Part shown: one piece after another, positions 1,753 through 61,508 of the stretch
Position numbering within the stretch: position 1 is the first letter of the stretch
Layout of the letters: every line of letters starts with the position of its first letter
Assembly: GCF_003721565.1 (NCBI RefSeq)
Contig: NZ_RJJE01000009.1
Span: 1,054,934 to 1,118,933, forward strand
From: Rufibacter immobilis
GTDB taxonomy: Bacteria > Bacteroidota > Bacteroidia > Cytophagales > Hymenobacteraceae
DNA: 64,000 bases
Direction of reading: 5' to 3'
The notes under the pieces: generated by a model
The model's database searches: none
The model's input: only the letters and a program-made list of their open reading frames with translations
Told to the model about the DNA's origin: nothing
Position numbers and translations under genes: made by a program

Positions 1753-1806
1753 AACCAGAAGGCCTCTGCCCTGCATTAAACTGGCAGAGGCCTTCTGGTT
1801 TGGGGC
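1753..1806 (+). terminator. Intrinsic terminator of the serine hydrolase gene
   Basis: Perfect 18-bp arms (1753-1770 and 1783-1800) around a 12-nt loop. The T-rich stretch after the stem (1806-1812) comes from the decayed palindromic repeat that abuts it. Confidence 0.8.
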
Positions 1807-1833
1807 TTTTTTAAGAAAAACGGCCCCTAAACG
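1800..1833. repeat. REP-like palindrome, copy 1
   Basis: TTGGGGC, a T-tract, an A-tract, then GGCCCCTAAACG: a partly decayed left arm and an intact right arm of the dispersed family, fused to the terminator stem. The rest of the gap to 2032 shows no gene. Confidence 0.7.
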
Positions 1834-2032
1834 GAAATGCCTGTAATATTCTACCCGCCCCCTCGACTTATGACGCAGTTATTGGAAAATGATCCGCCAC
1901 TCACCCTGTCTCTTCTTTTTTCAATCCATTATAAATCAAACCGTTACCGCCACTTCCTTCTAGGAATGTGGCAATAAATTCGTATTATTATCCTGAGAGT
2001 TCTGCTTTCTACAAACTAAACGAGCTTAGATC

Positions 2033-5026
2033 ATGTCTAAAAAGAGTACCCTGGCTATCTTACTGGCCGCCGCTATGCTAACGCAGGCCCAGGCGCAAAC
2101 CCAGAAGAAGGCCGCTCCGGTTAAAAAAACCACCGCTACGGCTTCGGCCAAAACCCAGCAAGGCACCCGCAAGCTGGAAACCGTCACTAAAAAGAATGGT
2201 GAACTGGTAATTCCTTACGAGAAATACCAACTGGCCAACGGCCTTACCGTGATTGTGCACGAAGACCATTCAGACCCTATTGTACACGTAGATGTGACCT
2301 ACCACGTAGGCTCCGGCCGCGAGGAAGTGGGTAAATCTGGTTTCGCGCACTTCTTTGAGCACATGATGTTCCAAGGCTCAGACAACGTAGCCGATGAAGA
2401 ACACTTCAAGATCGTCTCTGAGGCCGGCGGAACCCTGAACGGAACCACCAACCGCGACAGAACCAACTACTTTGAGACCGTGCCCTCCAACCAACTGGAG
2501 ACCGCTCTTTGGCTGGAAGCAGACCGCATGGGCTTCCTCCTGGATGCCGTAACCCAGCAGAAATTTGAGGTGCAGCGCGAGACCGTGAAAAATGAGCGCG
2601 GCCAACGGGTAGACAATGCCCCCTACGGCCTGTCTTATGAAAAAGTGAGCGCCGCCCTGTATCCCTACGGCCACCCGTACTCCTGGACCACCATTGGGTA
2701 TATTGAGGATCTGAACCGCGTAAACGTCAATGACCTCAAGAACTTCTTCCTGCGCTGGTACGGACCAAACAACGCTACCCTCACCGTGGGCGGTGACGTG
2801 ACCCCGGCCCAGGTGGTGAAACTGGCAGAGAAATACTTCGGCTCTATCCAGCGCGGCCCCGAGGTGAAGAACCAGAAACTGCCGGCTCCGGTGTTAACCC
2901 AGGACCGTTACATCTCTTACGAAGACAACGTCCGCTTCCCATTGGTGCAGATCACGTTGCCTACCGTGCCGGCCAATCACCCAGATGAGCCAGCCCTGGA
3001 TGTTCTTTCTAACATCATTGGCGGTGGCAAAACGTCTCTCATTTACCAGAACATGGTAAAAACGCAGAAAGCCAACCAGGCCGGTGCGTACCACTCCACC
3101 TCTGAGTTAGCCGGTGAATTCACGCTGTCTGCGCGGGTACTCCCTAACCAGAACCTAGCCGATGCCGAGAAACAACTGCGTGATGCCATTGCCGAGTTTG
3201 AGAAAAAAGGCGTGACCGATGAGGACATTGCCCGTTACAAAGCCTCATATGAAGCCAGCATCATCAACAGATTGTCCAGCGTATCTGGCAAAACGTCTAC
3301 TTTGGCGGCTAACCAGTTCATGACCGGCAATGCAAACCACTTGGTAAAGGAAAGACAGGCGGTGAACGCGGTGACCAAAGCCGATGTACTGCGTGTGTAC
3401 AACCAATATGTGAAAGGCAAGAAAGCCGTGATTCTGAGCGTGGTGCCCAAGGGCAAATCTGAGCTGATTGCCAAAGCCGATAATTTCAAAGTAGATCCTA
3501 GCGGCTACAAAGCTCCGGCAGACCAGTACTCTGGCCTTAAGTATGTGAAAGCCAAAGACACTTTTGACCGCAGCAAACGCCCGGCTGCCGGTGCTGTGCC
3601 TACCATCACGGTTCCACCGTTCTGGAAGGAAAGCATGGCCAACGGCATCAAAGTGATTGGAGCCAAGTCTGACGAGGTGCCAACCGTGACCTTGCTGTTC
3701 ACCCTGCAAGGCGGGCACAAACTGGAGGCACATGATCCGTCTAAGGCGGGTATCGCGTCTTTGACCGCCTCTATGCTGAATGAGTCTTCCCAGAAATTCA
3801 CCGCTGAGCAAATCAGTACAGAACTGGAGAAACTAGGCTCATCCATCGGGTTTGGCAGCGGCGCGGAAAGCATGACCGTACAAGTACAGTCTCAGGTGAA
3901 AAACCTGGATGCCACCTTGGCTCTGTTGGAGGAGCGCATGTTCCACCCTCGTTTCGACGCGTCTGAGTTTGACCGCCTCAAGAAGCAGCGCCTGGAAGCC
4001 ATCAAAAACCAGAGCACCCAGCCAACCGTGGTAGCCGACAACGTGTACAGCAAAATGCTCTACGGCGAAGGCAATATCAGAGCCATTCCAGTAGTGGGTA
4101 CCGTACAAACCGTGGAAAGCATCACGCTAGATGACGTGAAGAAATTCTACGCGAACTACTTCTCCCCTAGCGTGACCAACCTGGTAGTGGTAGGTGACAC
4201 TGATCAAAAACAGATCATGTCTAAACTGGCGTTCCTGAACAAGTGGCAAGCCAAACCGGTGACCATGCCGTCAGACACCAAGTTGGCCAGCATTGACAAG
4301 ACTAAGATCTTCATTGTAGACAAGGAGAAAGCCGCGCAGTCTGAAATCAGAATCGGGTACATGGCCCTTCCTTATGATGCCACCGGCGAGTACTACAAAG
4401 CCGGGCTCATGAACTACGTGCTGGGCGGGGCCTTCAACAGCCGCATCAACTTGAACCTGCGTGAAGACAAAGGCTACACCTACGGCGCCCGTTCCGGTTT
4501 CTCCGGTACTGAGGAAGCTGGTCCGTTCACGGCTTCTGCCGGGGTTCGTTCCAATGCCTCAGATGCTTCGGTGGTGGAGTTCATGAAAGAGATCAAGCGT
4601 TTCCGAGAGGAAGGCATTACTGATGCCGAGCTGGCTTTTATGAAAAATGCCATCGGGCAATCTGATGCCCGTAAGTACGAGACCTCGTTCCAGAAAGCGG
4701 CCTTCCTGAACAACATGCTCCGCTACAACCTGGACGCCGACTACGTGAACAAGCAGAACCAGATTTTGCAGAACATCACCAAGGAGGAGATCAACGCGCT
4801 GGCCAAGAAATACCTGCCGGTAGACAACATGAGCATCATGCTGGTGGGCGACAAAGCTGCTATCAAACCTGGTTTGGAGAAACTGGGCTATGAGGTGGTG
4901 GAACTGGACCCAGACGGCGCTCCGGTGCAGGCTCAGGCAGCAGTTCCCGTTGCCCCGGTAGAGCCTAAGAAAGCCGAGCCCGCCAAGAAAGGCCGCAAAG
5001 CCAGAGCTGAAGGCCGTGTTTTCTAA
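2033..5026 (+). CDS. M16 family zinc metallopeptidase (insulinase/pitrilysin-like), copy A
   Basis: A 997-residue exported protein with tandem M16 domains, as in two-domain pitrilysin-like proteases. A signal peptide ends near AQAQ (residues 19-22), followed by a Lys/Ala/Thr-rich linker. The inverted zinc motif HxxEH is HFFEH at residues 106-110, and the distal glutamate is probably Glu187 in ETVKNE. The second half (from about residue 530) lacks HxxEH, as is normal for the non-catalytic M16 domain. The C-terminus is Pro/Lys-rich and ends in EGRVF. It probably degrades peptides in the periplasm. A paralogue of identical length lies at 26263-29256 with the same terminator type, so this is a duplicated gene. 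Confidence 0.93.
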   Translation: MSKKSTLAILLAAAMLTQAQAQTQKKAAPVKKTTATASAKTQQGTRKLETVTKKNGELVIPYEKYQLANGLTVIVHEDHSDPIVHVDVTYHVGSGREEVGKSGFAHFFEHMMFQGSDNVADEEHFKIVSEAGGTLNGTTNRDRTNYFETVPSNQLETALWLEADRMGFLLDAVTQQKFEVQRETVKNERGQRVDNAPYGLSYEKVSAALYPYGHPYSWTTIGYIEDLNRVNVNDLKNFFLRWYGPNNATLTVGGDVTPAQVVKLAEKYFGSIQRGPEVKNQKLPAPVLTQDRYISYEDNVRFPLVQITLPTVPANHPDEPALDVLSNIIGGGKTSLIYQNMVKTQKANQAGAYHSTSELAGEFTLSARVLPNQNLADAEKQLRDAIAEFEKKGVTDEDIARYKASYEASIINRLSSVSGKTSTLAANQFMTGNANHLVKERQAVNAVTKADVLRVYNQYVKGKKAVILSVVPKGKSELIAKADNFKVDPSGYKAPADQYSGLKYVKAKDTFDRSKRPAAGAVPTITVPPFWKESMANGIKVIGAKSDEVPTVTLLFTLQGGHKLEAHDPSKAGIASLTASMLNESSQKFTAEQISTELEKLGSSIGFGSGAESMTVQVQSQVKNLDATLALLEERMFHPRFDASEFDRLKKQRLEAIKNQSTQPTVVADNVYSKMLYGEGNIRAIPVVGTVQTVESITLDDVKKFYANYFSPSVTNLVVVGDTDQKQIMSKLAFLNKWQAKPVTMPSDTKLASIDKTKIFIVDKEKAAQSEIRIGYMALPYDATGEYYKAGLMNYVLGGAFNSRINLNLREDKGYTYGARSGFSGTEEAGPFTASAGVRSNASDASVVEFMKEIKRFREEGITDAELAFMKNAIGQSDARKYETSFQKAAFLNNMLRYNLDADYVNKQNQILQNITKEEINALAKKYLPVDNMSIMLVGDKAAIKPGLEKLGYEVVELDPDGAPVQAQAAVPVAPVEPKKAEPAKKGRKARAEGRVF

Positions 5027-5069
5027 TTGACAATTCTAGAGGATTGGCCCAAAAGGCTATCCCTGTTTT

Positions 5070-5109
5070 AAAGGCGTTTCCGGAAAAAGACCCCGGAAAC
5101 GCCTTTTTT
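5070..5109 (+). terminator. Intrinsic terminator of M16 copy A
   Basis: Stem AAGGCGTTTCCGG / CCGGAAACGCCTT followed by a T-run. An almost identical hairpin follows the paralogue at 29279-29318. Confidence 0.85.
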
Positions 5110-5179
5110 CATGCCCGTGGGTACTGCTTATCATTTAGTGGCTACACTTACTCCACCACCTGCTCCCGCTTATGTTCCA

Positions 5180-5214
5180 TTTAGCGGCCCTTTTTCCAGA
5201 AACAGGTCAAAAAC
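5180..5214 (+). repeat. REP-like palindrome, degenerate copy
   Basis: TTTAGCGGCC, T-tract, CCAGAAACAGG, then TCAAAAACGC. The left half is recognisable and the right half decayed. Its end overlaps the last bases of the TonB receptor gene on the other strand. Confidence 0.45.
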
Positions 5215-7471
5215 GCTTCTGCAGTTGCAGGCCGCTGTAGAAGTTGCGGCCGGGCGCTGCCTGGAAATACCGGTTCCCGAAGGCGTTTAAGTCATTGCCC
5301 AAACTGTAGTCCCGGTCGGTGGCGTTCTCTACGCCGCCGTATACTTCCAGCCGCCACGTTTGGGCAAAAGCACGTCTGTAGCCGGCCTGGGCACCCACCA
5401 CCACATAGTCTGGCGCGTAAACGGTATTGGCATCATTAAGTGGTATCTCAGCGGAGTAGTTGGCCGTGGCGTTTAAATAAAGCCCTAGTTGGCTCTCCAC
5501 GTCCAGACCGACCACGGCTACGTGCGGGGCGGTACCGGTGAGACGGTTGCCCGAGAAGTCATTCTCGTTCTGCCGGTAATCTCTGAACCGGAAGTGGTTG
5601 TAGGTGTAGGTAGCCCACAGCCGCAGCAACCGCAGCTGTGCTTCCGGCGCCTGAATGATGGCGTAACCCAACGCAGCTTCCACGCCTTTCTGACGCGTAG
5701 CACCAGCATTGGCAAATACCGCCACCCCAGAAGGAGTGGTTCGGCTCACGATGGTTTCCTTCAGCTTGAAATGAAAGCCAACCAGATCAAATGTGAAGCG
5801 CTGGTTGAGCAAGATCCCTCTAAGACCCAATTCATAGTTCAGTCCCCGCTCTGGTTGCAAAGCCGTGTTGATGCTTCCGTCTGAAGGCCGCACCTCGGCC
5901 TCAGTGGGTGGTGAGAAACCGGCGCTCACGCTGGCATGCGCAGACAAAGCAGGCGAAATCACTTTTACCAGCCCCACTCGGGGTGAGAATTGGGCATCAA
6001 ACTCCCGGTTTTGAATGTAGCCGGTTGGTCTGGCTACCGCATCAGAGACGCGGGCAATCTTGTACTTCAGGTCGTTCAGGCTGGCTCCCAGGGTAAGCAG
6101 GAAATCAAGAGGCAAATCCACGGCGGCCTGCCCAAACACAAAACCCTCGGTCACGGCGACTTCATCGTCATACCTCAAGGCTCCCGGGGTACCGGCATTG
6201 TTCACGTATTGGCGGGCATTCACAAACCGACGCTGCCCTTCCAGCCCCAGCGTGAAACGGGCGGGCATTCCGCCTATACTGGTGCGGTAAGTAGTGCGCG
6301 TACGGCCCCCGAAACTCTGGTTCACGTTTCGCTCATAGTCGGTCACGAAGGGATGGTTGAGAAAACTGAACACGCCAAACAAAGAAGTGGTATTGCTCCA
6401 GCGTTCATTGAACTGGTAGTTGTGCACAAAGCCCAGGTTGAGCCCTTCCAGGTTAAGCGATGCGTTCTGGTCTTTGTTCTGCTGGCGCGCCGCCCGCGGA
6501 TTGGCCTCAAACTGCTCCCGCGTGAGGGCACCGGGCAATTCATAGAACAAATCTGAATACAGGGCATGGAAGGAGAAGGTCTGTTTCTGGTTAGGGTAAA
6601 ACTGCCCCGACAGTAGTACCGTCTTGCGGTCCATGGCGCTTTGCTCCCGGTAGCCGTCCAGGGTCTGGTGGTCATAGCGCAACAGCAGGTTAGATTTCTC
6701 AGAGGCCACGCTGGCCGAAGCGAAACCTCGGCGTAAGCCATAGGAACCCACCATGCCCCCGGCCAGCACGCTGCTTTCTGCGGGTTTCACGGTTTCCAGC
6801 AAGATGGTGCCGCCGGTACCCGCCCCGTACACGCTGCCCGCCGGACCTTTGAGCACCTCAACGTTGCCAATGGTGGCGGCATCCAGTAAGTTCAGCGGAA
6901 TAGTGCCGTTGGCTTCCACCAGAGGCACTTCATTTAAGTAGACTTTCACATTGCGCACCCCGTATGGCGCCCGCAACGAGCTTCCCCTAATGGAGATGCG
7001 GTAACTGGCAGTGGCCCGTTCTTCCATGCGCACTCCCGGAATGGTATTGAGGGCCGGTACCAGCGTAGTTTCACTGAACCGTTCCAGATCACGTTTTTCC
7101 AACAGGCCCACTGCCCCGGCGGTTTGCAGCAAGGGCCGCTGGGTTTCGTAGCCTCTCACCACCACTTCCTGTAATTTCACCGCCAGGGGTTCTAACAGAA
7201 TAACCAGTGGCTTCCTACTCTGGGGCACTACTAATTTCTGCAACCGATGGGTGGCGCGCTGCACCAACAGCGTGTCAAAACGGGACGCCAGTATGATGCT
7301 GAACTGACCGGTGGCATCTGTCAGGGATTGAAGACCGGTTCTGGCATCGCTCACCACGGCTCCCTCCAGCGGTTTTTGGGTTTGGGCATCCAATACACGG
7401 CCCGTCACGGTCACCTGCGCAGCGGCAGAAAGAACTAGTAGAAAGAAAAAAGAGGTAAAAAGGTATTTCAT
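5207..7471 (-). CDS. TonB-dependent outer-membrane receptor
   Basis: A ligand-gated outer-membrane importer. I place the start at the ATG at 7471 because MKYLFTSFFFLLVLSAAAQ is a clear signal peptide; the open frame extends 26 codons further upstream with no signal character. Domains are: a carboxypeptidase-regulatory-like beta-sandwich (about residues 20-90), a plug with RISIRGSSLRAPYG and VEVLKGPAGSVYGAGTGG (about 105-235), then a 22-strand-type beta-barrel ending in the typical terminal Phe (QLQKRF). No SusD-type partner is adjacent, so a siderophore, metal or other small-ligand role is more likely than glycan uptake. The ligand is unknown. Confidence 0.88.
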   Translation of the reverse strand: MKYLFTSFFFLLVLSAAAQVTVTGRVLDAQTQKPLEGAVVSDARTGLQSLTDATGQFSIILASRFDTLLVQRATHRLQKLVVPQSRKPLVILLEPLAVKLQEVVVRGYETQRPLLQTAGAVGLLEKRDLERFSETTLVPALNTIPGVRMEERATASYRISIRGSSLRAPYGVRNVKVYLNEVPLVEANGTIPLNLLDAATIGNVEVLKGPAGSVYGAGTGGTILLETVKPAESSVLAGGMVGSYGLRRGFASASVASEKSNLLLRYDHQTLDGYREQSAMDRKTVLLSGQFYPNQKQTFSFHALYSDLFYELPGALTREQFEANPRAARQQNKDQNASLNLEGLNLGFVHNYQFNERWSNTTSLFGVFSFLNHPFVTDYERNVNQSFGGRTRTTYRTSIGGMPARFTLGLEGQRRFVNARQYVNNAGTPGALRYDDEVAVTEGFVFGQAAVDLPLDFLLTLGASLNDLKYKIARVSDAVARPTGYIQNREFDAQFSPRVGLVKVISPALSAHASVSAGFSPPTEAEVRPSDGSINTALQPERGLNYELGLRGILLNQRFTFDLVGFHFKLKETIVSRTTPSGVAVFANAGATRQKGVEAALGYAIIQAPEAQLRLLRLWATYTYNHFRFRDYRQNENDFSGNRLTGTAPHVAVVGLDVESQLGLYLNATANYSAEIPLNDANTVYAPDYVVVGAQAGYRRAFAQTWRLEVYGGVENATDRDYSLGNDLNAFGNRYFQAAPGRNFYSGLQLQKRF

Positions 7472-9366: not shown

Positions 9367-9406
9367 CCTCATGGCACACTTCCTTCGGCTTTCCATTTTC
9401 ACTTTT

Positions 9407-9446
9407 GCGTTTAGGGGCAGTTTTTAGAAAAATAGCCCCTAAACGT
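9407..9446. repeat. REP-like palindrome, near-perfect copy
   Basis: GCGTTTAGGGGC ... GCCCCTAAACG with centre AGTTTTTAGAAAAAT. It lies about 40 bp after the S41 peptidase stop codon. Confidence 0.9.
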
Positions 9447-9550
9447 ATACTATTATGAATACATGCTCTCCCTTTAACCGTAGCACGGCAAGGAAAAGAT
9501 GGCTTAAACATTCCTCAACACATACGAACAAAACACCCGCATAAAACAAC

Positions 9551-9607
9551 AGAGGCCTTGCGTTTAGGGGCGGTTTTTCTAAAAACAGCTCCTAAACGCA
9601 AGGCCTC
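9551..9607 (+). repeat. REP-like palindrome nested in a longer terminator-like stem
   Basis: The repeat core (GCGTTTAGGGGC ... GCTCCTAAACGC) is extended on both sides by locus-specific complementary flanks (AGAGGCCTT / AAGGCCTCT), giving 21-bp arms with one G-T mismatch. It lies between convergent genes and probably terminates both. Confidence 0.9.
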
Positions 9608-12268: not shown

Positions 12269-12407
12269 GAAACGAGGGAATTAAGCCGAAAAAGGTTGAT
12301 TGTTCCGTAAGTTGGTGAATTTTTCAAAGACTTCCGCCCTACTCCGCAGCGATATTGCCGAAAAAAACAGTTCTTCCGCCTTCTGCCCCGTTAAATTCCT
12401 CAAGGTC

Positions 12408-12446
12408 TGTTTTGGGCCTGTTTTTGAAAAAGGAGGCTCTAAACGC
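12408..12446 (-). repeat. REP-like palindrome, degenerate copy
   Basis: TGTTTTGGGCCTG ... GGAGGCTCTAAACGC, in the 349-bp gap 12269-12617 between divergent genes. The rest of that gap holds the AraC-type operator and promoter listed separately. Confidence 0.7.
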
Positions 12447-12499
12447 ACTGGCTTCCCTTCAGAGAAACGGTAGCCTCTTCTCTCACGCCTCCCGGGCAT

Positions 12500-12943: not shown

Positions 12944-12975
12944 AATGTTAATTAAAGAAAGGTCTTTTCTGACCG

Positions 12976-13013
12976 GCGTTTAGCGGCCGATTTTCCAAAA
13001 ACGGAAGAGAAAC
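12976..13013. repeat. REP-like palindrome, degenerate copy
   Basis: GGCGTTTAGCGGCC ... CCAAAAACGG then decayed right arm, between the Atu4866-like gene and the AraC-type regulator. Confidence 0.55.
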
Positions 13014-13057
13014 AGGATCACAAGTGTACGTCCACCCAAAATCACTTATCTTACGCC

Positions 13058-14896: not shown

Positions 14897-14985
14897 GTAG
14901 AAAGATTTGTTTGCTGTTAGCTGAGCGAGCAAGAACGTTTGTTTATCTTGAAAGAGTAGATCAGGAAAGCCGCCCAGAACTCTTG

Positions 14986-15051
14986 AAAGCCACGGCTCCC
15001 GTTTAGGGGCTATTTTTAGAAAAATAGCCCCTAAACGGGAGCCGTGGCTTT
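14986..15051. repeat. REP-like palindrome with extended 32-bp arms
   Basis: Core GTTTAGGGGCTATTTTT / AAAAATAGCCCCTAAAC (15001-15036, 2-nt loop), flanked by 15-bp locus-specific arms (AAAGCCACGGCTCCC and its complement), making an almost continuous 66-nt palindrome ending in TTTT. It lies between convergent genes, so it probably works as a bidirectional terminator. Confidence 0.95.
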
Positions 15052-15105
15052 TAAGTACTGCGCAACCTCTTTCCAAAGCGCAGCATTAAAATGGTAACAG
15101 TACTG

Positions 15106-17120: not shown

Positions 17121-17166
17121 ACCGCGTTTAGGGGCCGTTTTTCCAAAAACAGCCCCTAAACGCGGT
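17121..17166 (+). repeat. REP-like palindrome, near-consensus copy
   Basis: ACCGCGTTTAGGGGC ... GCCCCTAAACGCGGT with centre CGTTTTTCCAAAAACA. It lies between two minus-strand genes, downstream of the 17189-17983 SDR. Confidence 0.95.
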
Positions 17167-18082: not shown

Positions 18083-18130
18083 TTTTGCGTTTAGGGGCTC
18101 TTTTTGGAAAAAGAGCCCCTAAACGCAAAA
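18083..18130. repeat. REP-like palindrome, fully symmetrical copy
   Basis: TTTTGCGTTTAGGGGC ... GCCCCTAAACGCAAAA with centre TCTTTTTGGAAAAAGA. Both halves match, so no orientation can be assigned. Confidence 0.95.
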
Positions 18131-18847: not shown

Positions 18848-19912
18848 ATGGCCAAGATTGTCTTAGCAGGCGGAAGCGGCTTTATTGGGCAGCTCCTCTC
18901 CCACCATTTCCTCGCCAAGGGCGATGAGGTAGTCATTCTCACCCGGAAACCCGCCGCGTGGCAAACTCCGGCCCGGCAAATCTACTGGGATGCCACTGGC
19001 CCCGGACCATGGGTGCAACACCTGGAACGCGCCGATGTCCTGATCAACCTCACGGGCAAAAGCGTGAACTGCCGCTATACCCAAAAGAATAAGCAGGAAA
19101 TTATTTTTTCACGGGTGAATGCTACTCAAGCTCTGGGAGACGCGGTGCGGCAATTACAGCGTCCGCCCCGACTCTGGATCAACGCCTCCTCGGCCACCAT
19201 CTACCGCCACGCGCAGGACGGTCCGCAAGACGAATTGACGGGCGAGATTGGCACGGGTTTCTCGGTGGAAGTATGCGGCAAATGGGAGAACGCCTTCTAC
19301 GCCCAGCACACGCCCGGCACCCGTAAGATTGCTCTGCGCCTGGCCATTGTCTTGGCCAACGAAGGAGGGGTGATGCCTTATTACCTGAACCTGGCCCGTC
19401 TGGGGCTGGGCGGCCGCCAAGGCAACGGCTTGCAGTGCTTCAGCTGGATTCATGCCCGGGATGTGATTAGCGGCATTGAGTTTCTGATGCAGCACGAAGA
19501 ACTGGAAGGTGACTTCAATCTTTCCTCTCCCCGCCCCGTGCCCAACCACCATTTCATGCAAACACTGCGGCAGGCCCTGGGCATTTCCTTTGGCCTGCGG
19601 GCCAGAAAATGGATGCTGGAGATTGGCGCCTGGCTCCTGAGAACAGAAACCGAACTGCTCCTGAAAAGCCGTTGGGTAGTGCCCACCCGCCTGCAACAGT
19701 CCGGGTACCAGTTTCAGGTACGAACCATTGAAGAGGCCGTGCGGCTGTGCCTGCCTGCCAAAGAAGCGGTTCCTGTTTTAAGCCCCAAATTTGAAAAACA
19801 GCCCCAAAAGGGGAAAGACTTAAGTTATTCTTTGGCAAGTTCTAACGTTCAGACTTCCACTTATGAAAAAGACCTTCCTTACCGCCGAATGGCGCAAACT
19901 CATCATCGCTAA
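18848..19912 (+). CDS. TIGR01777 family NAD(P)-dependent epimerase, with anomalous C-terminal tail
   Basis: An extended-SDR/epimerase-like protein (354 residues; the family is usually about 300). GGSGFIG near the N-terminus binds NAD(P). The C-terminal DUF1731 motif region (RKWMLEIGAWLLRTETELLLKSRWV) ends near residue 300 with GYQFQVRTIEEAVRLCL. The final 50 or so residues have no family counterpart. They read through a decayed palindromic repeat (19772-19812) and then overlap the DUF2071 gene by 50 bp in another frame, so the native stop codon appears lost. The function is presumed sugar-nucleotide or lipid-related epimerase/reductase; the substrate is unknown. Confidence 0.85.
   Translation: MAKIVLAGGSGFIGQLLSHHFLAKGDEVVILTRKPAAWQTPARQIYWDATGPGPWVQHLERADVLINLTGKSVNCRYTQKNKQEIIFSRVNATQALGDAVRQLQRPPRLWINASSATIYRHAQDGPQDELTGEIGTGFSVEVCGKWENAFYAQHTPGTRKIALRLAIVLANEGGVMPYYLNLARLGLGGRQGNGLQCFSWIHARDVISGIEFLMQHEELEGDFNLSSPRPVPNHHFMQTLRQALGISFGLRARKWMLEIGAWLLRTETELLLKSRWVVPTRLQQSGYQFQVRTIEEAVRLCLPAKEAVPVLSPKFEKQPQKGKDLSYSLASSNVQTSTYEKDLPYRRMAQTHHR
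19772..19812 (+). repeat. Decayed REP-like element inside a reading frame
   Basis: TGTTTTAAGCCCC ... GAAAAACAGCCCCAAAAGG resembles other degenerate copies (compare 12408). It is the only copy found wholly inside a coding frame. Confidence 0.5.
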
Positions 19913-22978: not shown

Positions 22979-23016
22979 TGTTTTAGGCGCTCCTTTTACA
23001 GAATGAAAGCCAAAAT
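22979..23016 (+). repeat. REP-like palindrome, degenerate copy
   Basis: TGTTTTAGGCGCTCC ... GAAAGCCAAAATAG, in the 263-bp gap between two minus-strand genes. Nothing else was recognised in the gap. Confidence 0.4.
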
Positions 23017-23087
23017 AGTTACAGTCCCCAGAGTAAGTTACTGGTTTCTGGGAGACTCCTTTTTCTTCCTTTTCCGTGGCACTGTAG

Positions 23088-25883: not shown

Positions 25884-26045
25884 ACAGGCAGGATAGAAAT
25901 GGAACATGAAGGAAAAAAGGTGGCTTTCAGGCACTAATGTTAAAGAATTACCCGTGAAGGGTCATGGTGCTGCCTCCACATTTAACAAACATTAACTTTT
26001 GAATCTCTGAACTTCAGGAAGAGACCAAGGCTCCAAAAGGCCTTT

Positions 26046-26084
26046 CCGTTTAGCGGCTGTTTTTCTGAAATCAGAGGCAAAACA
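26046..26084. repeat. REP-like palindrome, degenerate copy
   Basis: CCGTTTAGCGGCTG ... GAAATCAGAGGCAAAAC, within the 379-bp gap 25884-26262 between divergent genes. I see no gene or other clear element in the rest of that gap, which is AT-rich toward the M16 start. Confidence 0.6.
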
Positions 26085-26262
26085 CCAACCTAGGCTGCCG
26101 CTTTATATATTTCTTATATTTTTCCCCTGCTTTTTCTGCTTCTACCCCACTGCTCCAAGAGAACTGCTTCTTCTGCCAGATACAAAAACCAATAATTTTT
26201 TATAGAAATATCAGACTAATTAGTAAATTACTTAGGTCAAATTCATTTATAACCACAAGCGT

Positions 26263-29256: not shown

Positions 29257-29278
29257 GGTAACCTAAACAATCTGTTTT

Positions 29279-29318
29279 AAAGGCGTTTTCGGGAAAAGAC
29301 CCCGGAAACGCCTTTTTC
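29279..29318 (+). terminator. Intrinsic terminator of M16 copy B
   Basis: Stem AAAGGCGTTTTCGGG / CCCCGGAAACGCCTTT with T-run, almost the same as the hairpin after copy A (5070-5109). The duplicated unit therefore included the terminator. Confidence 0.85.
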
Positions 29319-29420
29319 TTTGAACTTCTTCTTAGGTTTAGGGAAAACTACGCAACCGTGGGTGCAGGCCGAGTTGATTTAGCATGAAGATTGGCCGTTT
29401 TCCCTACAGGCAGCACCGGC

Positions 29421-29459
29421 TGGTTTGGGCCTGTTTTAGGAAAAACGGCCGCTAAACGG
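29421..29459 (-). repeat. REP-like palindrome, degenerate copy
   Basis: TGGTTTGGGCCTG ... ACGGCCGCTAAACGG, upstream of the ketopantoate reductase gene. Confidence 0.65.
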
Positions 29460-29531
29460 GTGCTTCGGCCCTGAAGGCCAGCGTGGGACCTGGTGGTTTG
29501 CGTAGAACTTACCTAACACAAAAGAAACAAG

Positions 29532-30465: not shown

Positions 30466-30515
30466 AGTTTGCGTTTAGGGGCTGTTTTTGGAAAAAGAGC
30501 CCCTAAACGCAAACT
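30466..30515 (-). repeat. REP-like palindrome, consensus copy in minus orientation
   Basis: AGTTTGCGTTTAGGGGC ... GCCCCTAAACGCAAACT with centre TGTTTTTGGAAAAAGA, the exact reverse of the plus-orientation centre. It lies between two convergent stop codons and probably terminates both genes. Confidence 0.95.
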
Positions 30516-34196: not shown

Positions 34197-34210
34197 ACCG
34201 TGCTTTTCTA

Positions 34211-34246
34211 GTTTGAACCAATTTTAGGAAAAAGAGCCCCTAAACA
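34211..34246 (-). repeat. REP-like element, right half only
   Basis: GGAAAAAGAGCCCCTAAACA with no matching left arm, upstream of the pxp operon. Confidence 0.65.
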
Positions 34247-34380
34247 CGATCTGGAGCAAGAGCGCCGGTACCAGCCCCGGCATGGCTTCATTCAGAAGAT
34301 TGTACTACTTCTTCCTATACTTCGTTTTCTTTCCGACAATCCGCCAGGCTCCGGTGCTGTTTCAGGCAGTTCTGCCTCCG

Positions 34381-34423
34381 CGCGTTTAGGGGCTCTTTTT
34401 CCAAAAACAGGCCCTAAACGCAA
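34381..34423 (+). repeat. REP-like palindrome, near-consensus copy
   Basis: GCGTTTAGGGGC ... AGGCCCTAAACGC with centre TCTTTTTCCAAAAAC. The 295-bp divergent gap 34197-34491 contains this and the half copy at 34211, and nothing else recognised. Confidence 0.95.
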
Positions 34424-37944: not shown

Positions 37945-37961
37945 GAAACATCACCTCATTT

Positions 37962-38008
37962 ACAGAAACAGCCCGAAGACCTGCGTTTTCGGGCTGTTTC
38001 TGTAAAAA
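37962..38008 (+). terminator. Terminator of the YceI gene
   Basis: 16-bp stem ACAGAAACAGCCCGAA / TTCGGGCTGTTTCTGT (37962-37977, 37988-38003). The right arm doubles as the left arm of a decayed palindromic repeat. Confidence 0.75.
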
Positions 38009-38026
38009 GGGTCGCTAAACGCAAAA
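37981..38026 (-). repeat. REP-like palindrome, degenerate copy merged with a terminator
   Basis: CTGCGTTTTCGGGCTG ... GGGTCGCTAAACGCAAAAC. The stem of the terminator at 37962 uses its left half. Confidence 0.6.
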
Positions 38027-38052
38027 CGCGGCAATGGCTGGGCTTTCAGCTT

Positions 38053-40404: not shown

Positions 40405-40451
40405 GTAACCGGGCACTAATACGCGGCCCAACTCACTGTGACCTGCCAATC

Positions 40452-40490
40452 TGGTTTAGGGCTGATTCCGGAAAAAGAGCCGCTAAACGC
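40452..40490 (-). repeat. REP-like palindrome, degenerate copy
   Basis: TGGTTTAGGGCTG ... GAAAAAGAGCCGCTAAACGC, first of a tandem pair after fabF. Confidence 0.75.
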
Positions 40491-40512
40491 AATAGTATAG
40501 TTATTCCTTAAG

Positions 40513-40569
40513 AAAAATGGCCCCTACACATCCGTTTAGGGGCCATTTTTTCAGAATGGAGGCAAAACC
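40513..40569 (+). repeat. Tandem REP-derived inside-out terminator
   Basis: A right-arm remnant followed by a left arm makes a perfect 14-bp stem (AAAAATGGCCCCTA 40513-40526 / TAGGGGCCATTTTT 40537-40550) ending in a T-run. The second repeat continues to about 40569 with a decayed right arm. It probably terminates both convergent genes. Confidence 0.85.
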
Positions 40570-40593
40570 AGAGAACGGTTAGGCTGGCATTGG

Positions 40594-42404: not shown

Positions 42405-42437
42405 TCTTTACCTATCTTGCCAAGTGAGCTTCTAGAC

Positions 42438-42475
42438 TGCGTTTAGAGGCTCTTTTTTTGAAATCAAGCCTAAAC
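42438..42475 (+). repeat. REP-like palindrome, TTTAGAGGC variant, upstream of the RAYT gene
   Basis: GCGTTTAGAGGCTC ... GAAATCAAGCCTAAACC. It shares extended flanks (ACTGCG before, AACCAGGCTT after) with the copy at 44671-44711 on the far side of the RAYT and HNH genes. Confidence 0.85.
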
Positions 42476-42626
42476 CAGGCTTCCTTTTCTTCTTCCTTCT
42501 GGAACAGCAGTCTTTTTCCCTGCTCTCTTGTGTTCCAACTTTAGCGCCGTGACCGACCTACCTTGTTGGCTTGACCACGAACCATTCCCTTGCCCGTTCT
42601 GTAAAAAGAAAACTTTTTGTTTGCAC

Positions 42627-43158: not shown

Positions 43159-43160
43159 GG

Positions 43161-43184
43161 GTTGTTGGTGAGAACACCAACAAC
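43161..43184. repeat. Twin hairpin, left (GTTGTTGGTG)
   Basis: GTTGTTGGTG-AGAA-CACCAACAAC, 10-bp perfect arms and 4-nt loop, followed by GGCGGG. Its partner is at 44585-44608. It lies between the RAYT and the HNH gene. Confidence 0.85.
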
Positions 43185-43220
43185 GGCGGGATATATAATG
43201 ATTATCACGACAATGATTGC

Positions 43221-44652: not shown

Positions 44653-44690
44653 AAAAAAGAGCCTCTATACTGCGTTTAGAGGCTCTTTTT
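44653..44690. terminator. REP-derived terminator between convergent genes
   Basis: Perfect 14-bp stem AAAAAGAGCCTCTA / TAGAGGCTCTTTTT with A- and T-runs on both sides, so it can act on both strands (HNH gene and ettA). Confidence 0.85.
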
Positions 44691-44711
44691 CTTAAATCAG
44701 GGCAAAACCAG
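44671..44711 (+). repeat. REP-like palindrome, TTTAGAGGC variant, right of the HNH gene
   Basis: TGCGTTTAGAGGCTC ... AAATCAGGGCAAAACCAGG. Shares the same variant arm and flanks with 42438-42475, framing a segment of about 2.2 kb. Confidence 0.85.
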
Positions 44712-44713
44712 GC

Positions 44714-46381: not shown

Positions 46382-46421
46382 GGCGTATGTGTATAGATTC
46401 TGCTCTGAGTATTGGCAGGCG

Positions 46422-46462
46422 GCGTTTAGAGGGCGTTTTCAGAAAAAGAGCCGCTAAACAAA
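46422..46462 (-). repeat. REP-like palindrome, degenerate copy
   Basis: GGCGTTTAGAGGGCG ... GAAAAAGAGCCGCTAAAC, upstream of ettA. The remainder of the 253-bp divergent gap shows a promoter-like TAAATTTTG at 46542 and no gene. Confidence 0.75.
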
Positions 46463-46634
46463 ACCAAAAACCTTGTTCTTAGAAATCAGTATGAAAGCAA
46501 ATGTCAAGTTTAGGTTTTTCTGCCAACGGCCACAAATATCGTAAATTTTGGCGGGCCCGGGTTATGAAAATTGGAGGTAATTCATAAACTTGTACCAAAA
46601 TAGACTTTAAAATTTTCAGTTAATAATCCAGTAG

Positions 46635-49185: not shown

Positions 49186-49188
49186 TCT

Positions 49189-49268
49189 TAATTAAGAATT
49201 GGGAATTAGGAATTAAGAATGGCCTTATTGATAATTCTTAATTTCACATTCATAATTCCCAATTAAGA
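49189..49268. repeat. AT-rich imperfect inverted repeat
   Basis: Two blocks rich in AATTAAGAATTGGGAATTA and its complement (about 49190-49220 and 49240-49268) can fold into one long imperfect stem, between the DUF2795-like gene and a TTG-started ABC gene. It may be a terminator or a MITE-like element. Confidence 0.55.
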
Positions 49269-50000: not shown

Positions 50001-50005
50001 ACCAA

Positions 50006-50044
50006 CCGTTTAGCGGCTCTTTTTCCAGAAACAGCCCCAAAACA
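50006..50044 (+). repeat. REP-like palindrome, degenerate copy
   Basis: CCGTTTAGCGGCTC ... AAACAGCCCCAAAACAG, between convergent ABC and ispD genes. Confidence 0.8.
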
Positions 50045-50065
50045 GCACGTACGAACTCTGAAAAG

Positions 50066-50764: not shown

Positions 50765-50805
50765 AGGAAGTGGCAAGTTACGCATTCCCGCTTGCCTAGG
50801 CCAGC

Positions 50806-50845
50806 GCCGTTTAGGGGCTCTTTTTCCAAAAGAAGGGCCAAACCA
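50806..50845 (+). repeat. REP-like palindrome, near-consensus left arm
   Basis: GCCGTTTAGGGGCTC ... GAAGGGCCAAACCAG, upstream of ispD. Confidence 0.85.
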
Positions 50846-50891
50846 GAAGTATCTTCATTTCTTTCTAGCGGCACATGGCCAGAAGCGGCAG

Positions 50892-50932
50892 CTGTTTTGA
50901 AGCAGTTTCCGGAAAAACAGCCGCTAAACGCA
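50892..50932. repeat. REP-like palindrome, degenerate copy
   Basis: TGTTTTGAAGCAG ... AAAACAGCCGCTAAACGC. With the copy at 50806 it forms a close pair in the gap 50765-50969. Confidence 0.75.
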
Positions 50933-50969
50933 AAGTGGGGGTTCTTGCCGGGAATAGGTATTCTTGGGT

Positions 50970-53503: not shown

Positions 53504-53846
53504 AGCACCTGCTACAACATTGTGTTCATTTCGTCCTTATGCCTTTTCCCCGGAGCATTCGCTTTTATCTGCTGCTCACATAGTTATTCCAGAATTTCTT
53601 TCCAGAATACCTGCCTGCCTTCTACCTTTTCAACTCATGAAAGTACCACTTGCTCCAATCTATTACAACAAGCTTATTTTTTAAATTTTCTTAAAAAGAC
53701 GAGACTATTTAAACGTCACGCCATCTGTTCCTGAGTTACTTCTTTAAGAACGAGAGTGCTGGTAAAATGGCTCTTAGTCCACCAACTTTGTTGACTCTTA
53801 ATTTTCGACTTACTGAACGGAAACTGCTTCCTGCTACCACCAGATG

Positions 53847-53886
53847 TGCGTTTAGGGGCTCTTTTTCTGAAAACAGCCCCTAAACA
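53847..53886 (+). repeat. REP-like palindrome, consensus copy
   Basis: TGCGTTTAGGGGCTC ... AACAGCCCCTAAACA, in the 437-bp gap 53504-53940. The remaining left part of that gap holds no gene that I recognise. Confidence 0.92.
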
Positions 53887-53928
53887 AAAAGCCCCACGGG
53901 TGAAACTACCAGTGGGGCTTTTTGTTTG
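53882..53928 (-). terminator. Terminator of queA
   Basis: 16-bp stem AAACAAAAAGCCCCAC / GTGGGGCTTTTTGTTT with a 14-nt loop, 13 bases beyond the queA stop. It overlaps the repeat right arm. Confidence 0.8.
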
Positions 53929-53940
53929 AAAATAAATGTA

Positions 53941-54987: not shown

Positions 54988-54988
54988 G

Positions 54989-57472: not shown

Positions 57473-57490
57473 GAACGCTCTCCAGCGCCA

Positions 57491-57525
57491 GTTTTGGCCT
57501 GATTTCAGAAAAACCGCCCCTAAAC
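57491..57525 (-). repeat. REP-like palindrome, decayed left arm
   Basis: TTTTGGCCTG ... ACCGCCCCTAAACG, just after the LOG gene; its right arm pairs with the next copy. Confidence 0.75.
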
Positions 57526-57542
57526 GTATTTGGGGCGGTTTT
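57510..57542 (+). terminator. Inside-out REP terminator after the LOG gene
   Basis: AAAACCGCCCC (57510-57520) / GGGGCGGTTTT (57532-57542), formed by a right arm followed by the left arm of a second repeat, then a T-rich run. Confidence 0.85.
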
Positions 57543-57567
57543 ATTTTTTAGAAACAGGCGCTAGACG
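57530..57567. repeat. REP-like palindrome, second of the tandem pair
   Basis: TTTGGGGCGGTTTTATT ... GAAACAGGCGCTAGACG, decayed right arm. Confidence 0.6.
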
Positions 57568-57686: not shown

Positions 57687-58187
57687 ATGAAAAAAGCAAT
57701 TGTCATGCTTTTGTGCGGCACCACTCTGTTCGCTTCCGGCTGCGCATCTATCGTAAGCAAGACCAGGTATCCAATTAATCTCTCAAGTGCCCCAGACGGC
57801 GCTAAGTTCAGCATTGTTGACCGTAATGGACATGAGGTGGCTTCTGGGCAAACTCCCACCACAGTTACCCTTAAAACCGGAAACGGCTTCTTCAAGAAAG
57901 CGATTTATTCTATTAAGTTTTCAAAGGCAGGGCACACAGACAAAACCCTCACCCTGGAAGCTGATCTTAACGGATGGTACTTCGGGAACCTTATTTTTGG
58001 CGGCTTTATTGGTATGCTCATTGTAGACCCTGCCACTGGCGCCATGTACAAATTCAACCAGAGAGACGTGCAGGCATTGCTAAGCCAGAACACGGCGTTT
58101 GCCCCTCTCCAAAGTGAAGGACTCAAGATTGTTTCTGTGGAGGATATCCCTCAGGAACTGAGAGACAAATTGATTGAGATCAAATAA
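57687..58187 (+). CDS. Lipoprotein with PEGA-like domain
   Basis: A 166-residue lipoprotein: lipobox ASGC-A (Cys19), then ASIVSKTRYPINLSSAPDGAKFSIVDRNG, a PEGA-like beta-sandwich, and two helices near the end (KIVSVEDIPQELRDKLIEIK). A Gly-rich hydrophobic stretch (GNLIFGGFIGMLIVDP) lies near residue 110. Function unknown; probably in the periplasm or outer membrane. Confidence 0.8.
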   Translation: MKKAIVMLLCGTTLFASGCASIVSKTRYPINLSSAPDGAKFSIVDRNGHEVASGQTPTTVTLKTGNGFFKKAIYSIKFSKAGHTDKTLTLEADLNGWYFGNLIFGGFIGMLIVDPATGAMYKFNQRDVQALLSQNTAFAPLQSEGLKIVSVEDIPQELRDKLIEIK

Positions 58188-58199
58188 CTGTTTTTTACT

Positions 58200-58248
58200 T
58201 GTTTTCAGAAAAACCGCCCCTAAACGCACTTTAGGGGCGGTTTTGTTT
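58200..58248 (-). repeat. REP-derived inside-out terminator
   Basis: Perfect 15-bp stem AAAACCGCCCCTAAA (58210-58224) / TTTAGGGGCGGTTTT (58230-58244) with a 5-nt loop and T-rich tail, after the lipoprotein gene. A right arm joined to a left arm of the repeat family. Confidence 0.9.
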
Positions 58249-58314
58249 TAGTTCCGTATTAAGAAGCCGCCTTGGCAGCAGACTTTCTTTACTTATAGAC
58301 CCTTCAGCATTTTC

Positions 58315-58350
58315 TGTTTAGGGGCTCTTTTTCTGAAAACAACCCCTAAA
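58315..58350 (+). repeat. REP-like palindrome, near-consensus copy
   Basis: TCTGTTTAGGGGCTC ... AACAACCCCTAAATGG, in the 306-bp gap 58188-58493, which holds three elements: 58200, this copy and the palindrome at 58418. Confidence 0.9.
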
Positions 58351-58417
58351 TGGGAAGTACTGGAAGATGATGACAAAGCAACACTGTATTCCTATCCAGC
58401 CTCTAAGCATATTTTTT

Positions 58418-58466
58418 AATTATCGGTAATTATTTATTGATTTTCAATAAATAATTACCGATAATT
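58418..58466. promoter_or_regulatory. 49-nt perfect palindrome upstream of DUF2975-HTH
   Basis: Perfect 23-bp arms (58418-58440 and 58444-58466) with a 3-nt loop; left arm begins AATTATCGGTAATTATTTAT. It sits 27 bases before the DUF2975 start codon and is a strong candidate operator for the HTH protein encoded by the second gene. Confidence 0.75.
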
Positions 58467-58493
58467 GTTTTCATATTTAAACTTGATGTCGCT

Positions 58494-59021: not shown

Positions 59022-59024
59022 CGA

Positions 59025-59231: not shown

Positions 59232-59321
59232 AAACTCAAGAATGTGCTTAGACGAAGTTTGTTTCACGTTTCCCAAACCTCCTTCGCGCAGCGAGATTCT
59301 TTCAAAACCCTTTTGCCTTCC

Positions 59322-59948: not shown

Positions 59949-59984
59949 CTTAGCCTACAGTCCTGGCTTTTTCTGGAGAGCTCC

Positions 59985-60030
59985 TTTGCGTTTAGGGGCT
60001 GTTTTTCCAAAAAGAGGCGCTAAACGCAAA
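59985..60030. repeat. REP-like palindrome, near-consensus copy
   Basis: TTTGCGTTTAGGGGC ... GAGGCGCTAAACGCAAA with centre TGTTTTTCCAAAAA, so the two halves come from opposite orientations. Confidence 0.92.
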
Positions 60031-60088
60031 ACCGGAACCAAAAACTTGCCGGCAGGAAATAGGCTCGCCCCGGAAGCCCGGCAACTCC

Positions 60089-60096
60089 TATCTTTG
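60089..60096 (+). promoter_or_regulatory. TAnnTTTG promoter box of the D-threonine aldolase-like gene
   Basis: TATCTTTG, 25 bases before the ATG at 60121. It argues for that start and against the longer frame that runs through the repeat. Confidence 0.7.
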
Positions 60097-60120
60097 TCTT
60101 TCCACCACTGCCCCTTCGCC

Positions 60121-61239: not shown

Positions 61240-61240
61240 G

Positions 61241-61286
61241 GTTTCAGTTTCCGCCTGTTTTAGGAAAAAGAGGCTCTAAACGGAAC
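61241..61286 (-). repeat. REP-like palindrome, degenerate copy
   Basis: GTTTCAGTTTCCGCCTG ... GAGGCTCTAAACGGAAC, with short locus-specific flanks (GTTTC.../...GAAC). Confidence 0.7.
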
Positions 61287-61469
61287 TGGCGCTGACGCCC
61301 GCAGGAGCTGCGCACACTACGAGGTCTTCTGCACAACGGCTAACTCGTTACATACCATCATCACCAATGATTGGATGTAAGCAGCAGTACCACTTACTCA
61401 AATGACCTCGCAGCGTCTCCGGACCTGCGAGCGTCTGTGCCAACAGCGGTTTCCCAAGCGGGCATTCCT

Positions 61470-61508
61470 GTTTCCCGGCTCTTTTTCCCAAAACAGCCCC
61501 AAAACGCC
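61470..61508 (+). repeat. REP-like palindrome, degenerate copy
   Basis: TGTTTCCCGGCTC ... AACAGCCCCAAAACGCC. The 393-bp gap 61240-61632 has this, the copy at 61241 and the uvrA promoter, and no gene that I can support. Confidence 0.7.

What the first reader, a model, noticed from the sequence alone, without database searches (positions are those of the whole stretch)
1800..61508. Dense family of about 34 intergenic REP-like palindromes in 64 kb
Copies share left arm GCGTTTAGGGGC, right arm GCCCCTAAACGC and an asymmetric centre (CTCTTTTTCC then AAAAACAG) that occurs in both orientations (consensus plus copy 34381; exact reverse at 30466). I counted about 34 full, half and decayed elements, one per 1.9 kb, almost all between genes. 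Several lie between convergent stop codons. Their spread of decay (perfect at 14986 and 18083, scarcely recognisable at 22979) implies long-running activity. This fits REP elements mobilised by a RAYT. I do not know a described family with this sequence.
Basis: partly seen in the sequence, partly recalled or inferred. Interest (0 to 1): 0.75.

Follow-up and report, generated by a model that had tools for sequence, protein, structure and literature searches.

The report
Position-conserved intergenic palindrome family in Rufibacter
This bacterium carries a 44-letter mirror-image DNA motif an estimated two thousand times, mostly between its genes; the copies look like jumping elements but in the regions compared mostly sit where related species have theirs, so they seem inherited in place, while their sequence has become unusually uniform in this one species.

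Summary
A profile finds 35 copies in the window and 213 in 464 kb of the genome, none in the reversed sequence. The strict pattern occurs 785/806 times (forward/reverse) genome-wide, control 0. That suggests about 2,000 copies (extrapolated).

The mobile-REP reading is not supported. The family occurs in 16 of 16 genomes of the genus, by name Rufibacter; a palindrome pattern found it in no other of 291 sampled genomes of the order, bar two places in one. When this genome has a copy in a gap, 101 of 131 orthologous gaps in seven relatives also have one, against 37 of 125 otherwise. Of 59 one-to-one pairs, 46 sit at the same offset (random 13.5). The one Y1 (RAYT-like) gene detected is not flanked directly by this palindrome, and Y1 number does not track copy number.

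New: at 16 inherited positions, copies here resemble each other (0.759) more than their orthologues (0.666); relatives show the reverse. Twelve of 72 symmetric copies have private, mutually complementary flanks. I favour an old gene-end element, homogenised in this lineage. Function and homogenising mechanism are inferred.

The parts
1793..1836 (-). copy, intermediate
5063..5102 (-). copy, weak
   Evidence: profile score 17.2
5175..5218 (+). copy, intermediate
9405..9448 (.). copy, symmetric
9558..9601 (.). copy, symmetric; 8 bp of private complementary flank on each side
12405..12448 (-). copy, intermediate
12974..13017 (+). copy, asymmetric
14997..15040 (.). copy, symmetric; palindrome runs 14982-15055 (36-nt arms) through private flanks
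17122..17165 (.). copy, symmetric
18085..18128 (.). copy, symmetric, 100% complementary arms
19771..19814 (-). copy, asymmetric, weak, inside a called ORF
22979..23020 (+). diverged copy (approximate limits), below threshold here; copies in the same gap of relatives
26044..26087 (+). copy, asymmetric
29270..29311 (-). copy, weak
   Evidence: profile score 17.1
29418..29461 (-). copy, intermediate
30469..30512 (.). copy, symmetric, fills most of a 60-bp convergent gap
34206..34249 (-). copy, asymmetric
34380..34423 (.). copy, symmetric
37981..38024 (+). copy, intermediate; left arm is also the 3' arm of a terminator-like hairpin (5' arm 37959-37980)
40449..40492 (-). copy, asymmetric
40508..40526 (-). 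half copy; 40513-40529 pairs with 40534-40550
40530..40573 (+). copy, asymmetric
42437..42480 (+). copy, asymmetric
44670..44713 (+). copy, asymmetric; strong half doubles as 3' arm of a terminator-like hairpin starting 44654
46420..46463 (-). copy, intermediate; same position in all 7 relatives
50004..50047 (+). copy, intermediate
50805..50848 (+). copy, asymmetric; copies in the same gap of the 7 relatives
50890..50933 (-). copy, asymmetric
53846..53889 (+). copy, intermediate, directly beside a canonical terminator; copies in the same gap of 5 of 6 comparable relatives
57486..57529 (-). copy, asymmetric
57544..57563 (+). half copy
   Evidence: profile score 9.0
58186..58229 (-). copy, asymmetric
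58312..58355 (+). copy, intermediate
59986..60029 (.). copy, symmetric (overlaps a doubtful TTG ORF start)
61242..61285 (-). copy, asymmetric
61466..61509 (-). copy, intermediate

Best explanation
An old, genus-restricted family of intergenic imperfect palindromes (genus-wide about GTTTnnGGgCtgTTTT-nn-nAAAaCAGgCCnnAAAC) that is inherited in place and acts as a functional element near gene ends. Shown: in the regions compared, positions are mostly orthologous across the genus; where a gap has a copy it usually has one; copies are densest between convergent genes. Shown: in this species the sequence has become uniform (SCGTTTAGSGGCYSTTTTTC half-site), and over a third of copies (72 of 196) have two matching halves, some with private flanks that also match. 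Inferred: arm-to-arm matching arises by hairpin-templated template switching during replication. Inferred: the elements serve the ends of transcription units on either strand (termination, mRNA 3'-end protection, or a protein-binding site), and selection keeps them. The force that makes copies at different loci alike is not shown.
For: Orthologous gaps: 101 of 131 relative gaps hold a copy when ours does, 37 of 125 when it does not. 46 of 59 one-to-one pairs are within 15 bp of the same offset from a gene end; random placement gives a mean of 13.5 and a maximum of 21 in 200 runs. Flank-anchored test, score 7 or more plus weak 3-7: symmetric 77 of 80, intermediate 45 of 52, asymmetric 57 of 74, element-free control gaps 39 of 82; with the gap length restricted to 60-400 bp and score 7 or more the fractions are 0.88, 0.77, 0.73 and 0.47. 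G042 against G051 (85.1% identical in aligned blocks): 50 of 50 and 53 of 53 copies inside blocks align with no large gap. Copies per gap are under-dispersed: of 46 tandem gaps of 200-350 bp, 12, 28 and 6 hold none, one and two (variance 0.37, mean 0.87); 17 of 21 convergent gaps of 60-120 bp hold one (such short gaps have room for little more). Density per kb of gap, computed: convergent 4.6, tandem 2.45, divergent 1.6. Strong-half deviations are not a decay spectrum: 216 of 365 are G/C swaps, 207 of them at four columns, against 104 transitions. Complementary flank runs of 5 bp or more outside the 44-mer: 12 of 72 symmetric copies against 0.24 expected. Long stems diverge between species yet stay paired at two loci viewed.
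Against: Asymmetric copies fold hardly better than element-free gaps (median -10.2 against -8.7 kcal/mol), so a pure RNA-hairpin role does not fit them. In tandem gaps their orientation is random with respect to transcription (12 sense, 13 antisense). 25 copies lie in divergent gaps, one of them conserved in all seven relatives. A canonical U-tract terminator overlaps the copy in only 13 of 139 element-bearing gaps. Symmetric copies are almost all the GGGGC variant (34 of 35 strict ones) while asymmetric strong halves are 39% GCGGC, so template switching from ordinary asymmetric copies does not by itself make the symmetric class. Element-free control gaps are often occupied in relatives too (39 of 82). 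Without the block restriction, 9 of 64 and 5 of 63 anchored copies of the closest pair had no detectable counterpart. Gene calls are crude ORF calls. The homogenisation comparison rests on 16 loci and was not given a significance test.
Confidence: 0.45

Rival explanations
1. REP elements spread by a RAYT (Y1 transposase), still or recently transposing.
For: Dense intergenic palindromes with hundreds of near-identical copies. One detected RAYT-like gene with NHLH and YIHQNP motifs and 181 aa, like subclass 2.6 of PMC6006769 (passages read). Copies of this repeat lie about 215 and 260 bp from its frame, one on each side. 7 of 30 Y1 loci have copies within 600 bp on both sides. All 16 genus genomes have the repeat and 15 of 16 have Y1 hits.
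Against: Orthologous positions. No correlation of Y1 number with repeat number. The repeat lies within 200 bp of only 5 of the 20 Y1 frames resolved (10 of 30 loci not resolved), while 16 of those 20 have some other short hairpin within 200 bp, a few of them terminator-like and without a random control. No GTAG-type foot in the consensus. Mostly single copies: 22 of 207 spacings under 150 bp.
Confidence: 0.12
2. Concerted evolution by in-place overwriting: a master palindrome of this lineage is copied onto resident copies (for example single-stranded hairpin DNA annealing at replication gaps), so positions stay old while sequences become uniform.
For: Paralogues here 0.759 against orthologues 0.666 and non-orthologous cross-genome pairs 0.650; relatives the other way (orthologues 0.691, paralogues 0.621). 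Column 9 is A in 15 of 16 copies here but in only 4 of 46 positional orthologues (12 of the 46 unaligned at that column). About 800 strict copies genome-wide. Symmetric copies sit at old positions (77 of 80 anchored pairs at 16 sites). Strong palindromes (score 19 or more) are 39 of 196 here and 34 of 710 in relatives.
Against: No enzyme or intermediate identified. Some copies look only partly overwritten (C10_260k 3252 keeps GCATTT). Selection for one binding motif could give the same pattern, and so could retention here with loss elsewhere. Few loci.
Confidence: 0.2
3. Genome-wide binding sites of a sequence-specific DNA-binding protein (nucleoid, terminator-roadblock or other); the dyad is an operator and the weak half a tolerated poor half-site.
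For: Genus-wide nearly invariant positions GTTT, TTT, AA, AAAC, with clear covariation in relatives only at column pairs 9:36, 10:35 and, weaker, 14:31. G/C degeneracy at fixed columns. Random orientation. Weak folding of asymmetric copies.
Against: Perfect palindromes with private flank extension are not needed for an operator. About 2,000 sites is very many. No candidate protein.
Confidence: 0.18
4. DNA uptake sequences (as in Neisseria), paired at gene ends.
For: About 2,000 copies extrapolated; paired inverted half-sites densest between convergent genes, as described for Neisseria in PMC1852404 (passages read); a uniform core in this genome.
Against: No exact half-site CGTTTAGVGGCYNTTTT outside the elements in 464 kb: 182 of 182 lie inside. 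Relatives lack a uniform core. Competence genes not searched.
Confidence: 0.05

Closest known systems
REP elements / REPINs (Enterobacteria, Pseudomonas)
   Same: Short palindromes, hundreds to thousands of copies, intergenic, many near gene 3' ends (features partly recalled, partly from passages)
   Different: No GT[AG]G foot, mostly solitary, orthologous in position across the genus, no demonstrated link to a RAYT
Atypical hairpins beside TnpA-REP subclass 2.6 of Bacteroidetes (PMC6006769, passages read)
   Same: Same phylum; this genome's Y1 protein has the subclass motifs and length (NHLH, YIHQNP, 181 aa against 179 in the paper's table)
   Different: The hairpins closest to Y1 genes here are other short sequences, and four such hairpins occur 0-3 times in 464 kb here, the Y1 locus included, and 0-3 times in each relative's stretches
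Paired DNA uptake sequences acting as terminators (Neisseria, Pasteurellaceae)
   Same: Inverted half-sites at gene ends, thousand-fold copy number, core uniform within the species
   Different: No free exact half-sites found; relatives have mixed cores
Template-switch-maintained hairpins (PMC8794818; abstract and outline read)
   Same: Compensatory changes across whole stems and extension of perfect stems
   Different: Described for RNA genes; here many dispersed intergenic copies

Membership tests
REP elements | Short palindrome repeated over 100 times between genes | tested here: met
REP elements | Conserved GT[AG]G tetranucleotide at the foot of the hairpin | tested here: not met
   foot is SCGTTTAG / CTAAACGS; the paper's subclass 2.6 hairpins also lack it
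REP elements | Gene for a cognate RAYT flanked by the same palindrome | tested here: not met
   5 of 20 resolved Y1 frames (of 30 loci) have a copy within 200 bp, not this genome's own; within 600 bp this genome's gene has one on each side
REP elements | Presence/absence differences between related genomes (mobility) | tested here: not met
   50 of 50 and 53 of 53 in aligned blocks without a large gap; 55 of 64 and 58 of 63 anchored copies present or weak. Same-species strains not available
REPIN / BIME | Inverted pairs at regular short spacing | tested here: not met
   22 of 207 spacings under 150 bp; regularity of those not tested
TnpA-REP subclass 2.6 | NH[LIV]H and YIH[QN]NP motifs, about 179 aa (the Y1 protein) | tested here: met
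   the subclass insertion and C-terminal motif were not tested
Intrinsic terminators | GC-rich hairpin followed by a T tract | tested here: not met
   overlapping terminator in 13 of 139 element-bearing gaps of 50-500 bp; a few such as 44654-44690 do qualify
DNA uptake sequences | Core motif also over-represented singly, inside genes too | tested here: not met
   182 of 182 exact half-sites in 464 kb inside elements
MITEs | Terminal repeats with target-site duplication and transposase homology | not tested
   no clean empty site was identified from which to read a duplication
Rfam families | Match above gathering score | tested here: not met
   0 matches in the window

The most novel reading that the evidence does not exclude
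A bacterial genome in which about 2,000 dispersed 44-bp elements undergo concerted evolution in place. Copies do not jump; resident copies at ancestral sites are overwritten, by the lineage's master palindrome and by hairpin-templated arm copying. This would be a molecular-drive process working on sites too short for ordinary gene conversion.
Probability: 0.2. Interest if true: 0.8.

Novelty: new variant of a known kind. Interest (0 to 1): 0.52.

Why it matters
Dense intergenic palindromes are usually read as traces of transposition. Here, in the regions compared, they are mostly old and fixed in place, usually one to an occupied gap, yet uniform in sequence in one species. That makes two questions testable: what homogenises short dispersed repeats without moving them, and whether a whole genus marks many of its gene ends with one sequence-specific element instead of ordinary terminators. 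It also warns that a high count of near-identical palindromes does not prove mobility.

Tried and rejected
Rejected or left open: Rfam families (0 matches). Hairpins beside Y1 genes as dispersed families: my first whole-genome pattern had a spacer one base too long for the hairpin next to the own Y1 gene and does not test it (it gave 0-8 hits per genome, controls 1-16); repeated with correct spacing on 464 kb of this genome and 1.87 Mb of relatives, four such hairpins occur 0-3 times per genome sample, controls 0-1. A strong-half orientation bias towards transcription or replication: none overall. Viral contigs: 0 exact matches. Plasmids: no match at E 0.01. Asymmetric copies as neutrally decayed symmetric ones: they have a consensus of their own, and weak+weak combinations would be detected in 74-94% of simulations with profile m1, while only 13 of 213 detected copies lack a good half. 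Template switching as the sole origin of the symmetric class: doubtful, because symmetric copies are almost all the GGGGC variant.

Literature: searches. 'Rufibacter' with 'repetitive extragenic' gives 0 papers. The string GTTTAGGGGC gives 15 papers, unrelated by title and start of abstract. No description of this family was seen in those listings; the held library lacks most subscription papers. Passages were seen from PMC3733652, PMC12306157, PMC6006769 (section 25 in full), PMC8049555 and PMC1852404; outline and abstract of PMC8794818.

Limits: genes are ORF calls of 80-100 aa or more, not curated. Profile m1 was trained on this genome's copies, so relatives' diverged copies are under-counted. 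Of this genome 464 kb of 4,769 kb was examined in detail; of seven relatives 1.87 Mb. In the flank-anchored test most copies had no anchor (59-63 of 72 symmetric copies per relative), mainly because only parts of the relatives were fetched, and they are not in its counts. The aligned-block test favours undisturbed blocks: 50 of 82 copies of G042 and 53 of 123 of G051 were in blocks, and 'aligned' there means no large gap, not a recognisable copy (one of the 50 aligned at 0.46 identity). The flank-anchored version gave for G042 to G051 49 present, 6 weak, 9 absent, 18 without anchor, and for G051 to G042 48, 10, 5, 59.
Full report
WHAT IS THERE. The window lies in a 4.77-Mb genome in 17 contigs. 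Its nearest named relatives are Rufibacter species, Hymenobacteraceae by my own knowledge. GCGTTTAGGGGC with up to two mismatches occurs 45 times in the window against 7.83 expected. A profile from strict copies finds 193 places at score 12 or more in 464 kb (window plus 400 kb fetched) and none in the reversed sequence; 30 are in the window. A broader profile trained on all copies finds 213 at score 8 or more (reversed control 0), 35 of them in the window. Over the whole genome the strict 31-base pattern with up to two mismatches occurs 785 times forward and 806 reverse, control 0. Because the element is nearly symmetric, these are about 800 elements. By extrapolation from 464 kb there are about 2,000 in all.

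ANATOMY. Strict copies are 44-bp palindromes, TTGCGTTTAGGGGCYSTTTTTNNAAAAASRGCCCCTAAACGCAA. Of 196 copies aligned on their better half, 72 are symmetric, 66 intermediate and 58 asymmetric. The asymmetric ones have a conserved strong half, SCGTTTAGSGGCTSTTTTTC, and a weak half with its own consensus, about GAAATCAGGCYTAAACCAG. Strong-half deviations are not random: 216 of 365 are G/C swaps, 207 of them in columns 3, 11, 13 and 16, with 104 transitions and 45 other changes; columns 7, 8 and 18 never vary. Columns 11 and 16 are linked (odds ratio 5), so there are at least two subfamilies. The symmetric form folds at -32.8 kcal/mol, the asymmetric consensus at -8.5, no better than shuffles. Asymmetric copies in place have a median of -10.2, element-free gap windows -8.7.

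PRIVATE FLANKS. Outside the 44-mer, the two flanks of some symmetric copies complement each other with sequence unique to that copy: runs of 5 bp or more in 12 of 72, expected 0.24; in 2 of 66 intermediate copies (expected 0.14); in 0 of 58 asymmetric ones. The extreme in the window is 14982-15055 with 36-nt arms. Within copies, mirrored deviations from the consensus number 119 against a permuted mean of 86.1 and maximum of 106 in 1,000. Strong palindromes (score 19 or more) are 39 of 196 here and 34 of 710 in the relatives. Template switching can produce and repair such stems (PMC8794818, abstract and outline read). Inserting a palindrome into an existing hairpin loop would also give complementary flanks.

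WHERE THEY SIT. 180 of 196 copies lie outside called ORFs, 177 of them between two called genes. Per kb of gap there are 4.6 in convergent, 2.45 in tandem and 1.6 in divergent gaps (computed from counts). In tandem gaps the centre lies a median 70 bp from the upstream stop and 127 bp from the downstream start. In tandem gaps the strong half is 12 sense to 13 antisense for asymmetric copies and 13 to 19 for intermediate ones. There is no consistent strand bias across the six stretches. Numbers per gap are less variable than Poisson: of 46 tandem gaps of 200-350 bp, 12, 28 and 6 hold none, one and two; of 21 convergent gaps of 60-120 bp, 17 hold exactly one, though so short a gap has little room for two. 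Canonical terminators separate from the copy are found in 8 of 38 convergent gaps with a copy and 5 of 9 without. This hints that copies can stand in for them, but numbers are small.

RELATIVES. In 120 sampled genomes of the family the strict pattern is found only in the genus, 12 of 120 genomes. With a looser half-site all 16 genus genomes have it: 1168 per strand here, 41-429 per strand in the others, controls 0-8 per strand. In 291 sampled genomes of the order a palindrome pattern finds the four genus genomes in the sample and two places in one incomplete genome. Using flanking genes, gaps orthologous to 60 gaps of this genome were found in seven relatives. If our gap holds a copy, the relative's does in 101 of 131 (symmetric only 36 of 45, mixed 13 of 15, others 52 of 71); if not, 37 of 125. 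Of 59 one-to-one pairs, 46 lie within 15 bp of the same offset from a gene end, against 13.5 for random placement. At 46.4 kb all eight genomes have the element at the same spot in a gap of 250-254 bp, with conserved sequence around it and diverged arms. At C10_100k 92129 and 93469 whole stems differ between species and stay largely complementary. In the two closest relatives compared, 50 of 50 and 53 of 53 copies inside alignable blocks align without a large gap. The flank-anchored test, free of that block bias, gives 55 of 64 and 58 of 63 anchored copies present or weakly present. Element-free control gaps score 39 of 82, so the contrast matters more than the raw rate.

UNIFORM HERE. At 16 loci with positional orthologues, copies of this genome are more alike among themselves (0.759) than to their orthologues (0.666), and orthologues are hardly closer than unrelated copies of other species (0.650). 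Among relatives, orthologues (0.691) exceed paralogues (0.621). Column 9 is A in 15 of these 16 own copies; among the 46 orthologues it is A in 4 and unaligned in 12. No significance test was made. So uniformity arose in this lineage at sites it already had, or was kept here and lost elsewhere; the data do not separate these.

THE TRANSPOSASE QUESTION. One Y1 gene is detected, 181 aa, between a dnaE-like and a trxA-like gene (my reading), with NHLH and YIHQNP. PMC6006769 describes subclass 2.6, mostly Bacteroidetes, 179 aa in its table, NH[LIV]H, YIH[QN]NP, flanked by atypical hairpins with copies elsewhere. Near this gene the repeat occurs about 215 bp upstream and 260 bp downstream of the frame, while CTTCCGGATTTACTAATCCGGAAG lies within 155 bp. 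In 30 Y1 loci (97 kb) there are 55 copies, and 7 of 30 have copies within 600 bp on both sides; no control for intergenic context was made. I resolved 20 of 30 frames; 5 have a copy within 200 bp, and 16 have some other short hairpin there, on both sides of the gene in several (for types). Those hairpins are not dispersed families in the stretches held: 0-3 places per genome sample (the earlier pattern was mis-spaced). Y1 number and repeat number are unrelated. I therefore do not file the family under RAYT-driven REPs, without excluding an ancient link.

VERDICT. Observation confirmed; mobility not supported within the genus; most likely an inherited gene-end element with lineage-specific homogenisation. 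The function and the homogenising mechanism remain inferences.

Noticed in passing
window 49186-49268: AT-rich imperfect repeat block (AATTAAGAATTGGGAATTAGG type) downstream of a small ORF; blocks of a similar kind sit at this place in several relatives.
   Followed up: no
window about 43160-43200 and about 44620; C10_100k about 88 kb: A second palindrome, GTTGTTGGTnnnnACACCAACAAC type, recurs in gaps of this genome.
   Followed up: no
gap 37944-38053 and its orthologues in G006, G063, G057, G027, G051: Five relatives carry about 200 extra bases with inverted-looking arms (TCTTGGAAGGACCTTGGTGGCGAACGG type) where this genome has a 108-bp gap: a candidate MITE-like element (by eye).
   Followed up: no
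L058, L059, L038, L039, L040, L048, L052, L053: Y1 genes of the genus carry short hairpins of at least two types (GGCGCGGAAGTTACTTCCGTGCC; GGAAGTTTATAAACTTCC) directly at their ends, in several on both sides: possibly the real cognate REPs of these RAYT-like genes, though not dispersed in the stretches held.
   Followed up: partly
window 58418-58466: Perfect AT-rich inverted repeat AATTATCGGTAATTATTTATTGA, 23-nt arms, 3-nt loop, in a gap before 58494.
   Followed up: no
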